Positions 60,688 through 62,140 of a DNA stretch of 64,000 nucleotides are shown piece by piece. The notes beneath the pieces are model-generated. The model was not told the origin of the DNA and searched no databases. It was given only the letters and a program-made list of their open reading frames with translations. This stretch comes from Variovorax sp. 770b2 (lineage in GTDB: Bacteria > Pseudomonadota > Gammaproteobacteria > Burkholderiales > Burkholderiaceae_C), in NCBI RefSeq assembly GCF_900115685.1, contig NZ_FOXJ01000002.1, forward strand, positions 620,001 through 684,000, written 5' to 3'. The translations under genes and the position numbers were made by a program. Each line of letters opens with the position of its first letter. The first letter of the stretch is position 1.

Positions 60688-60954
60688 GGAAGTCTCCTGG
60701 AAAGAAATGGTTGTCGAGGATCTCTCTGTGGAAACCGCCAACAGCTCGGGGGCGCGATGCGCTTGAGATCAATACGGGAGGTCGGTGCAACTGGATTCAC
60801 CGCGCCGCATCGCGTCGGCTTTGCGCCACAGCGTTGCAAGTGGCGCTTGCGCATCGCGCATGCGCTCGACAGAATCCGCCCTTCGTTTTTCAGCAACAGT
60901 TTCTTTTCACCGCGCCTGGCGACTTGCGACCTCCCGGGCGACCAACCAATTCAA

Positions 60955-60978
60955 TGAACCGTTTCCTGAACACCTGAC
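60955..60978 (+). other. Seven-codon open frame (possible leader peptide)
   Basis: ATG AAC CGT TTC CTG AAC ACC TGA encodes MNRFLNT, ending 47 bp before the first hairpin. It has no strong ribosome-binding sequence. It may be a leader peptide linked to the attenuator or simply chance. Confidence 0.25.
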
Positions 60979-61024
60979 CCGCACACCGACCGCCCCGGCC
61001 GGATGTGCATCCATGCATCCGCCG

Positions 61025-61043
61025 AGGCCTTGTCGACAAAGGC
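61025..61043 (+). promoter_or_regulatory. Antiterminator-like hairpin
   Basis: GGCCTT at 61025-61030 pairs with AAGGCC at 61038-61043 around a GTCGACA loop. The right arm is the same sequence that forms the left arm of the terminator, so the two structures exclude each other. Confidence 0.5.
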
Positions 61044-61078
61044 CCCGCGCAGCCATTCGCCGGGGCCTTTTTGTTTTT
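61037..61078 (+). terminator. Intrinsic terminator in the leader of the two-gene cassette
   Basis: AAAGGCCCCG at 61037-61046 pairs perfectly with CGGGGCCTTT at 61060-61069, followed by TTGTTTTTT. It ends 15 bases before the ATG at 61093, so it would block expression of the downstream genes unless the competing hairpin at 61025-61043 forms first. It may alternatively end a small RNA from upstream. Confidence 0.8.
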
Positions 61079-61092
61079 TGGAGTGTGCGCAC

Positions 61093-61320
61093 ATGAGTGC
61101 TCAACGAAAGGCCCGCGACGACGACAAGCGTCTGGGCCGTTTCTATTTTTCGGTGCCGAATGCGGCACCTCGCAATCCCGTGGTGGCCGCGATGGCGCGC
61201 CGCGAATCTAGCCAGGGCGCCGGGCGCCACCTGCGCACGCACCGCGCCGAGCGGCGTGCGCAGAAGGTGGCGTTGCAGAAGACTGCGCGTAGCGCAGGGC
61301 GAGGGGGCGACGATGCGTGA
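61093..61320 (+). CDS. Small highly basic protein of unknown function
   Basis: This 75-residue protein begins MSAQRKARDDDKRLGRFYF and is very rich in lysine and arginine throughout (RRAERRAQKVALQKTARS). It is predicted soluble and might bind nucleic acid. I recognise no named domain. GGAG stands ten bases before the ATG. Its TGA overlaps the start region of the next gene by 8 bp. Sequence preceding it is an attenuator-like structure. It pairs with the 275-residue gene, and such pairs of small and large unknown proteins seem familiar from other bacteria. Confidence 0.6.
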   Translation: MSAQRKARDDDKRLGRFYFSVPNAAPRNPVVAAMARRESSQGAGRHLRTHRAERRAQKVALQKTARSAGRGGDDA

Positions 61321-62140
61321 CGACATGGACAAGGTCATCGTCGAACGCCCGCGCCGCGGCGGTGGCGTGCAGGGCGACGGGCGCGGCTTTCGCAACAGCC
61401 GCGAGCGCGGCTCGCACCTGGGCATGAAGCGCGGCCATGACCATCCGAAGGGGCTGAACGAAAACCTCGCGCCGCTCAAGCGCTGGTTGCACAAGCAGGT
61501 GCACAGGCCGTGGGACAAGGTGTATGCGGAGCTCTGCAGCGGCATCGATCGACGCAGTACGGTGCAGGCGCACATCTTCGAGCACATCGACCAGTTCGTC
61601 GAACGCGGGGCGGTGATGCGCGATGGCCAGGTGTGGGTGAACTCGCCCCGATGGAGGGGCGGGCGCCGTGTGCCGCTTCGCGAAGCCGCGCACGTCGAGC
61701 TGTTCGTGCACCCCGTCACGGGCATCGTGCTGCCCAACCGGCGATTGCGCGAAGCACGCCAGGCGCAGCAGGAGGCGTATCGCGTTGCGCGGGCCGGTTG
61801 GCCGACCGACAAGAAGCGCCACACGGTCTTTCATGTGATCGACGAGTTCACGCAGTGGCACCGCATCGATGGCTGCTGGTTCGAGGTCACCATCGCGCCG
61901 CTGCCCGAGCTGCGGCGGACAGTGCTCGATGTGACGTACTACGACGTGCTGCGCCGCTGCCCGGTCTCGCGCCGTGGCGGTTGCGAGAAGCCGGCCTTCG
62001 GGTCACCCGATCATCGGGAGATGTACGGGCGGGACCATGTATACGCCGCGGCCATGTGCAAGCTGAGCCTGCAGAGAGTACGGGAGCGTTTTGGCGATTC
62101 CTGCGAAGGCCCTGTGCCTAAGCATCGAGCTCGCGCTTGA
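61313..62140 (+). CDS. Conserved-looking protein of unknown function
   Basis: This 275-residue protein starts MRDDMDKVIVERPRRGGG, is strongly basic in its first 50 residues, and carries RPWDKVYAELCSGIDRRSTVQ near residues 64-84. A core follows with VELFVHPVTGIVLPNRRLREA, HVIDEFTQWHRIDGCWFEV and a C-terminal cysteine-bearing tail (RRCPVSRRGGCEKP). I do not recognise a named domain; from memory, similar short sequences occur in proteins annotated only as hypothetical. GAGGGGG precedes the ATG. It overlaps the small upstream gene by 8 bp and the converging gene downstream by 23 bp. Confidence 0.6.
   Translation: MRDDMDKVIVERPRRGGGVQGDGRGFRNSRERGSHLGMKRGHDHPKGLNENLAPLKRWLHKQVHRPWDKVYAELCSGIDRRSTVQAHIFEHIDQFVERGAVMRDGQVWVNSPRWRGGRRVPLREAAHVELFVHPVTGIVLPNRRLREARQAQQEAYRVARAGWPTDKKRHTVFHVIDEFTQWHRIDGCWFEVTIAPLPELRRTVLDVTYYDVLRRCPVSRRGGCEKPAFGSPDHREMYGRDHVYAAAMCKLSLQRVRERFGDSCEGPVPKHRARA

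What the first reader, a model, noticed from the sequence alone, without database searches (positions are those of the whole stretch)
60847..62140. Attenuator-like leader controlling a two-gene cassette of unknown function
Two hairpins in the leader share one arm: GGCCTT(61025-61030)/AAGGCC(61038-61043) against AAAGGCCCCG(61037-61046)/CGGGGCCTTT(61060-61069) plus U-run. Only one can form, the classic terminator/antiterminator design, only 15 bases before a 75-residue basic protein gene that overlaps a 275-residue gene. A seven-codon open frame (MNRFLNT) sits upstream. Neither protein has a domain I know. Together this suggests a condition-dependent system of undescribed function, or alternatively a small RNA that stops at this terminator.
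Basis: partly seen in the sequence, partly recalled or inferred. Interest (0 to 1): 0.75.

Follow-up and report, generated by a model that had tools for sequence, protein, structure and literature searches.

The report
Translation-sensing leader for RNA-repair-linked gene pair
A soil bacterium carries a short RNA leader, with a tiny seven-codon gene and a built-in transcription stop, in front of two uncharacterised genes whose relatives often sit beside RNA-repair enzymes, which suggests an emergency kit that is switched on when protein synthesis falters.

Summary
The leader is real and conserved. A promoter-like site, a seven-codon open frame (60954-60977), a hairpin and a strong intrinsic terminator (61038-61079) precede a 75-residue basic protein gene and an overlapping 275-residue gene. 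The frame has exactly seven sense codons in 37 of 37 leaders examined. A pairing of the stretch just after the seven-codon stop with the small gene's ribosome-binding site is better conserved in Variovorax, but not in the one other genus. Neither protein has a named family. Relatives of both recur near the RNA ligase gene rtcB: 8 of 18 non-Variovorax cellular relatives of the large protein have an RtcB gene beside them, or one small gene away. In Burkholderiales, rtcB genes followed by the small-protein gene carry the same leader design in 8 of 9 cases, against 0 of 48 other rtcB genes and 1 of 221 control genes, and lack the regulator RtcR nearby. Best reading: a translation-stress attenuator, working like the P. 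aeruginosa PA5471.1-armZ leader, for a split-off part of an RtcR-free RNA-repair operon. Induction, uORF translation and protein functions are inferred.

The parts
60847..60875 (+). promoter-like site: TTGCGC (60847-60852), 17-base spacer, CAGAAT (60870-60875)
   Evidence: CTTGC and CANAATCC invariant in the 20-leader alignment; position; the consensus scan found no sigma-70-type site, so it rests on conservation and reading by eye
60954..60977 (+). seven-codon uORF MNRFLNT*
   Evidence: exactly 7 sense codons ATG..TGA in 37 of 37 leaders, 12 distinct DNA versions; SD-like sequence in only 1 of 37
60980..60992 (+). P0 5' strand (CGCACAC 60980-60986 and CCG 60990-60992), right after the uORF stop, complementary to the small gene's SD region
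   Evidence: RNAalifold consensus; 98.6% and 100% of cells paired; a perfect longer version in L103; fails in L012
60992..60999 (+). element A GCCCCGGC, 12-14 bases after the uORF stop, complementary to the terminator 3' arm
   Evidence: spacing in 21 of 21; duplex -18.6 to -28.4 kcal/mol, but not formed at equilibrium
60997..61023 (+). P1 hairpin
   Evidence: consensus fold, 96.1% of cells paired; a C-G to U-A change in L031/L032 read by eye
61038..61079 (+). intrinsic terminator hairpin (61038-61070) and U-rich run
   Evidence: two pairs with changes on both sides
61079..61089 (+). SD GGAG (61080-61083) and P0 3' strand (61079-61081 and GTGTGCG 61083-61089)
61093..61320 (+). small basic protein gene (75 aa, PRNPVV...GAGRH...RRA motif)
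   Evidence: found in all 19 Variovorax loci and in L012, L034, L057
61313..62140 (+). large protein gene (275 aa), start overlaps the end of the small gene
   Evidence: relatives

Best explanation
The region is a cis-acting, translation-sensing attenuation leader. A promoter near 60850-60875 drives a short RNA that holds a seven-codon ORF, and most transcripts end at the terminator just before the small gene. When ribosomes initiate poorly, pause or fail to leave the mini-ORF, the RNA downstream of its stop codon rearranges, more polymerases read through, and the SD of the small gene, paired with the bases right after the mini-ORF stop, becomes free. The small basic protein and its partner are then made. 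Both are probably RNA- or ribosome-binding accessory factors of an RtcB-type RNA-repair system; in Variovorax this unit has split off from rtcB. Shown: conservation of uORF, terminator and gene order, and the genomic link to rtcB with the same leader design. Inferred: translation of the uORF, direction of the response, the inducing signal and the protein functions.
For: uORF of exactly 7 codons in 37 of 37 leaders, with length changes close by on both sides. Fixed 12-14 base spacing to element A in 21 of 21. Strong terminator in 21 of 21 with compensatory pairs. The leader model hits the own genome once and 17 of 37 same-genus genomes strongly. Same plan in another genus, L012. rtcB genes with the small gene within 1.6 kb downstream have a strong terminator plus SD-preceded uORF in 8 of 9, against 0 of 48 other rtcB genes (Fisher p 5.4e-9) and 1 of 221 control genes; RtcR or Ro60 in the fetched flanks in 0 of 9 against 20 of 48. 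Pfam finds RtcB, RtcR, Ro60 vWA, RF-1, RNA cyclase, Hen1, PNKP-ligase and Band_7 domains in neighbours of large-protein relatives. Precedent: the RtcB-like gene armZ of P. aeruginosa is reported to be controlled by leader peptide PA5471.1, proposed to act by attenuation on ribosome stalling (PMC12057347, passages; PMC3516279, passages).
Against: No antiterminator wins at equilibrium, with or without a simulated ribosome mask. By the pattern used, the Variovorax uORF lacks an SD in 36 of 36 leaders. P0 is nearly invariant in sequence, so mostly uninformative; single-leader shuffle values are 0.03-0.12 except L103 (0 of 500), and it fails in L012 (0.41). The window locus has no rtcB beside it; the own genome's RtcR, Ro60 and RtcB genes lie on another contig. 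Ten of 18 large-protein relatives have no RtcB beside them, and no virus locus does. Only 10 of 28 small-protein loci read have RtcB upstream within the locus. L203 has rtcB, small and large genes but no such leader. The small gene of L088 and the large gene of L033/L097 look frame-shifted, and three leaders lack the large gene.
Confidence: 0.6

Rival explanations
1. The conserved product is a small RNA of about 190 bases that ends at the terminator and acts in trans; the pair is expressed by leaky read-through.
For: Terminator always formed; one strong match per genome and strong conservation; C-rich motifs (ACCTCCC, GCCCCGGC) of the kind that can bind SD sequences.
Against: The leader is joined to the small gene in all 37 leaders collected; the P0 partner strand lies beyond the terminator; rtcB-small operons with different uORF sequences keep the same plan, as expected for a cis design.
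Confidence: 0.17
2. Autogenous control: one of the two basic proteins binds the leader and promotes termination or blocks the SD, as ribosomal proteins do.
For: Both proteins are rich in basic residues; P0 overlaps the SD.
Against: It does not explain the conserved uORF or the same plan before rtcB; three genomes keep the leader without the large gene.
Confidence: 0.12
3. A constitutive weak-expression arrangement: the terminator only lowers expression and the uORF is an untranslated relic.
For: No SD before the Variovorax uORF; no competing structure at equilibrium.
Against: 37 of 37 intact seven-codon frames; 8 of 9 against 1 of 221.
Confidence: 0.11

Closest known systems
PA5471.1 leader of armZ (PA5471)-prfH (PA5470), Pseudomonas aeruginosa
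   Same: Short leader ORF, predicted terminators, then an RtcB-like gene; reported to be induced by ribosome-targeting drugs, with attenuation proposed (PMC12057347 and PMC3516279, passages seen).
   Different: Leader peptide of 13 residues about 250 bp upstream; the first gene is the RtcB-like armZ. Here the peptide has 7 residues, the terminator abuts the gene, and the controlled genes are a small basic protein and a 275-aa protein without rtcB. The two leaders were not compared by sequence.
uORF-dependent attenuation of a DUF1127 gene, Sinorhizobium meliloti
   Same: uORF plus premature termination upstream of a small protein gene; proposed to monitor translation (PMC12218461, abstract seen).
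   Different: Different small-protein family: no DUF1127 match for P0002. That work has reporter data; here there is none.
toiL uORF of topAI-yjhQ, Escherichia coli
   Same: uORF coupled to occlusion of a downstream ribosome-binding site (PMC12121999, abstract seen).
   Different: Termination there is Rho-dependent inside topAI; here it is an intrinsic terminator before the gene.
RtcR/sigma-54-controlled rtcBA operons (PMC7790460, passages seen)
   Same: RNA-repair gene content in relatives of the pair.
   Different: No RtcR or Ro60 within the fetched 3 kb flanks of any of the 9 rtcB-small loci; control appears to be by leader attenuation.

Membership tests
Ribosome-mediated transcription attenuator (PA5471.1-armZ type) | short leader ORF upstream of the gene | tested here: met
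   7 codons in 37 of 37 leaders
Ribosome-mediated transcription attenuator (PA5471.1-armZ type) | the leader ORF is translated | tested here: inconclusive
   frame conserved, but SD in 1 of 37; no ribosome profiling available
Ribosome-mediated transcription attenuator (PA5471.1-armZ type) | intrinsic terminator between leader ORF and gene | tested here: met
   21 of 21
Ribosome-mediated transcription attenuator (PA5471.1-armZ type) | competing antiterminator structure | tested here: inconclusive
   A:T3' duplex possible in 21 of 21 but 0.10 or less at equilibrium; folding during transcription not modelled
Ribosome-mediated transcription attenuator (PA5471.1-armZ type) | induction by ribosome-targeting drugs | not testable with these tools
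   needs an experiment
Ribosome-mediated transcription attenuator (PA5471.1-armZ type) | controls an RtcB-like gene | tested here: not met
   not in the window; met in relatives such as L173, L180, L188
   63% of cells paired; U-A pairs in 3 of 18
RtcR-controlled rtcBA RNA-repair operon | RtcR and RtcB beside the genes | tested here: not met
   neighbours are a fasciclin gene and a gene without a Pfam match; RtcR, Ro60 and RtcB lie on contig C5
Rfam families | score above a family's gathering cut-off in the leader | tested here: not met
   best BjrC68 18.6 bits against a cut-off of 39
DUF1127 small Arg-rich proteins | Pfam DUF1127 match of P0002 | tested here: not met
   only DUF3373 at E 0.058, below its cut-off

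The most novel reading that the evidence does not exclude
There is an undescribed, RtcR-independent branch of bacterial RNA-repair operons. rtcB, a small basic PRNP-motif protein and sometimes the 275-aa-type protein are controlled by a ribosome-sensing uORF-terminator leader instead of the RtcR/sigma-54 switch. In Variovorax the leader and the two accessory proteins have broken away from rtcB and act as a stand-alone damage-recognition or ribosome-protection module, whose large member is also found in large phages.
Probability: 0.4. Interest if true: 0.78.

Novelty: new variant of a known kind. Interest (0 to 1): 0.62.

Why it matters
What RtcB repairs in most bacteria, and how cells know when to make it, is an open question (from general knowledge); the operon in the passages seen here uses RtcR. 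A second mode, in which the translation machinery itself reports damage through a short uORF, would make that question testable in soil bacteria. It would also name two protein families, without an assigned function in the libraries searched, as likely partners of RNA ligation. The link between the small-protein gene and the leader (8 of 9 against 0 of 48) is a concrete handle.

Tried and rejected
An alternative antiterminator (element A with the terminator 3' arm) was proposed and tested: it exists as a duplex in 21 of 21 but reaches at most 0.10 at equilibrium, with or without ribosome masks, so it is kept only as a possibility during transcription.

Protein fold: the AlphaFold model of the large protein is moderate (mean pLDDT 72, pTM 0.44, residues 5-48 low). 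Foldseek best E 0.68 (PDB) and 0.084 (viral), nothing at E 0.001. The VIA-align second look gave Z 4.0 at best (CST complex) and 3.3-3.6 for PC4-type chains, too weak to use. phmmer against PDB sequences: none. PHROG 33158, unknown function, E 4e-4. PADLOC none.

Small-protein searches: no plasmid match for two members; the two phage matches (E 0.9) are not credible. Large protein: one plasmid and one phage record; 20 viral loci. RtcB in 1 of the 18 phage and virus records and 3 of the 4 bacterial ones searched.

Not analysed or dropped: of the rtcB rows only 57 of the 58 scoring 396-449 bits were used (own genome left out). The 30 supplied loci of the longer RtcB class (L137-L166), its ten further rows and the lower-scoring or fragmentary rows were not. 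Of the 54 rows, 28 non-Variovorax loci were read; rows near E 0.01 may be chance. L177's small-gene match is weak (0.015); without it the count is 7 of 8. The nine rtcB-small genomes fall in only 5 family codes, so the Fisher value overstates independence. In L169, L171 and L176 the small gene lies 0.7-1.3 kb after rtcB, not directly behind it. In one search six weak rows (E 0.006-0.063) were dropped; the three of them fetched as loci look like plain terminators. In one search, L090, L091, L098 and L099 were not read for the downstream genes. The profiles were built from members of the same families.

Literature: ten searches of the held library; none listed a paper on an attenuator of rtcB in Burkholderiales or on these proteins, as far as the listings show. 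Most subscription papers are not held.

Full report
1. What is there. The window lies in a 7.45-Mb genome without a name; the nearest named relatives of the large protein are Variovorax. Between a fasciclin-domain gene on the minus strand and a gene without a Pfam match on the minus strand lie a leader, a 75-residue basic protein gene (61093-61320) and a 275-residue gene (61313-62140). Because the upstream neighbour points the other way, the terminator at 61038-61079 cannot belong to it; it most likely ends a transcript that starts in the leader. Folding of 60950-61092 is far better than shuffles (z -4.19, 0 of 200). The simple scan lists neither this terminator, whose loop is too long for it, nor a promoter. 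Rfam has nothing above a family's cut-off in the leader; in eight related loci only a tRNA in L110 passes.

2. The leader is conserved. In an alignment of 20 Variovorax leaders a promoter-like CTTGC...CANAATCC, the mini-ORF, a C-rich element, hairpin P1, the terminator and the SD stand out. The mini-ORF has exactly seven sense codons in 37 of 37 leaders (36 Variovorax, some of them the same in two collections, plus L012 of another genus), in 12 DNA versions: MNRFLNT in 25, then MNRYLNT, MNRSLNT, MSRFLNT, MKRFLNT, MNRLLNT, MNRPLNS, MNRFLNF, MNRFIVH, MNRLFAL and, in L012, MMFLVFT. Length changes occur just upstream (spacing to the CCTCCC motif of 23, 24, 25 or 33 bases where the motif is found) and just downstream, but not inside. 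The stop codon is 12-14 bases from element GCCCCGGC in 21 of 21. Against this, only L012 has an SD-like pattern before the mini-ORF, so its translation is inferred. A covariance model of the leader finds the own locus as the only match in the own genome and 17 of 37 same-genus genomes at E 4.6e-25 or better; six weaker rows up to E 0.063 were dropped, two of them second places in genomes with a strong match.

3. Structures. RNAalifold on 20 leaders gives three elements: P0, which pairs the bases right after the mini-ORF stop with the SD region of the small gene; P1; and the terminator. 96.9% of cells are paired, reached by 0 of 500 shuffles and by no slid version; the number of pairs changed on both sides (2) is reached by 20 of 500, and both lie in the terminator and come from two sequences. 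Four of the seven main P0 pairs never vary, so P0 rests mainly on G-C to G-U changes in four leaders and on L103, where a base change and a two-base deletion make a perfect helix that includes the SD (-21.5 kcal/mol, 0 of 500 shuffles). The other Variovorax leaders give -11.4 to -14.9 kcal/mol with shuffle values of 0.03-0.12, and L012 fails (0.41). Equilibrium folding gives the terminator probability 0.90-1.00 in 21 of 21 leaders, also with regions masked as if by a ribosome. A classic two-state switch is therefore not shown; folding during transcription could differ.

4. The proteins. Neither has a Pfam, NCBIfam or PADLOC match above a cut-off, nor do several relatives in Pfam and NCBIfam. 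The large protein has a conserved N-terminal MR.DM.KVIVERPR, a core around LNENL.PL and RPW.KVY.E, and a basic C-terminal end in most relatives. Its model is moderate and has no convincing fold match. It is rare: 6 of 299 genomes in the family draw, 3 of 369 in the class draw and 5 of 398 in the phylum draw, each including the own genome. It also occurs in 20 virus loci, four of them alike, and in Myxococcus phage Mx1; none of these stretches shows RtcB or the small protein.

5. Link to RNA repair. Among 18 non-Variovorax cellular loci with a large-protein relative (L012, L013, L014, L034, L035, L037-L041, L047, L054, L056-L060, L203), eight have an RtcB gene beside it or separated only by the small gene: L037, L039, L054, L056 (Pfam), L035 and the divergent L047 (Pfam), and with the small gene between, L034 (Pfam) and L203 (profile). 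L037 and L039 are both labelled Maricaulis. L056 adds RtcR, RNA cyclase, Hen1 and PNKP-ligase; L054 adds an RF-1-domain gene (PrfH-like by recall), RtcR, Ro60 and a second RtcB. L013 has RtcB and a Band_7 (slipin-like by recall) gene about 7 kb away. L057 keeps the last 11 codons and stop of an rtcB gene (HTLRQVICVKG*) directly before its small gene, a likely relic showing that the pair descends from an rtcB-small-large operon such as L034 and L203. The other eight (L012, L014, L038, L040, L041, L058-L060) show no RtcB in the 3-18 kb held; the matches of L059 and L060 to the large protein are weak and partial. Of 13 same-genus model-hit loci read downstream, three (L095, L100, L102) keep leader and small gene but have lost the large gene, so leader plus small gene looks like the core unit. 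Against that, L088 seems to have a frame-shifted small gene and L097 a shortened large one.

6. The small protein and its leader elsewhere. A profile of the small protein (A6) matches 52 of 399 Burkholderiales-order genomes at E 0.01. Of 28 non-Variovorax loci read, 10 have RtcB upstream on the same strand within the locus, six of them within 400 bases; 18 do not. Looking upstream of such rtcB genes showed the same plan in L034, L110, L114, L119 and L123, not in L136: SD, short ORF, hairpin, terminator, gene. I then fetched 57 rtcB loci of this RtcB class and scored all with one detector. Nine have the small gene within 1.6 kb downstream, and eight of these nine have a strong terminator and an SD-preceded uORF before rtcB; the exception is L203, the same place as L136. 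None of the 48 others has both; two (L172, L218) pass the terminator test alone. Fisher p is 5.4e-9, taking loci as independent, which they are not fully. RtcR or Ro60 lies in the fetched flanks of 0 of 9 and 20 of 48. Among 221 other genes in the same loci, 8 have the terminator and 1 has both. In six leaders (L169 counted from its second in-frame ATG, L171, L176, L180, L188, L119) the uORF has 11 codons with [S/T]P before its last four, and the following hairpin has one pair that is U-A in three and C-G in three. The RtcB of the window's own genome is of the RtcR/Ro60 type and lies elsewhere.

7. How it most likely works. By anatomy this is an attenuation leader that reads translation through a short ORF, and by context it governs RNA-repair accessory proteins. 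The nearest described case is P. aeruginosa PA5471.1-armZ-prfH, where an RtcB-like gene is controlled by a 13-residue leader peptide and induced by ribosome-targeting drugs, with attenuation proposed (passages of PMC12057347 and PMC3516279). The S. meliloti DUF1127 and E. coli toiL cases show that uORFs can monitor translation in general (abstracts). The window locus works like these but is not filed as a member: it does not control an RtcB gene, and translation, induction and an antiterminator are unproven. Passages of PMC7790460 describe RtcR control of rtcBA; the searches named under Tried and rejected listed no paper on a uORF-controlled rtcB operon of this type.

8. Verdict. It is a new variant of a known kind of control, with two unassigned protein families attached.

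Noticed in passing
L061-L080: Relatives of the large protein in 20 virus loci (several contigs over 240 kb), without the small gene or RtcB in the fetched stretch; the record of L079 carries an RtcB-like fragment about 7 kb away.
   Followed up: partly
L013, L014, L047: Large-protein relatives without the 75-aa gene have another conserved mini-ORF, M[PST]QCH[LR]PMH*, whose stop codon starts a hairpin, plus a 16-18 aa ORF overlapping the start of the large gene.
   Followed up: partly
L054 and L058, upstream of the large-protein relative: A conserved 33-residue ORF (MH...H..F.C.Q..[IM]AWAI[LP]SRA..LA) in two alphaproteobacterial loci.
   Followed up: no
L129, L131, L135: Small-protein relatives appear to follow a gene that looks, by recall, like the end of hslU; not tested with a profile.
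   Followed up: no
L112, L117, L120-L122, L127: Another unassigned gene ends close before the small-protein gene; in L112, L117, L122 and L127 rtcB lies further upstream on the same strand.
   Followed up: no
L047:7566-8246 and L057:9254-9832: HNH endonuclease genes near large-protein relatives in two Burkholderiales genomes.
   Followed up: no
L044:8031-9938: A protein with AAA and M41-peptidase matches directly after the large-protein relative of L012.
   Followed up: no
L043:6890-7480: A 197-aa ORF without a Pfam match between Ro60 and RtcB in the own genome's RNA-repair cluster.
   Followed up: no
60929-60935: ACCTCCC is invariant in the 20-leader alignment, ending 18 bases before the uORF in most leaders; it resembles an anti-SD sequence and its role is unknown.
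   Followed up: no
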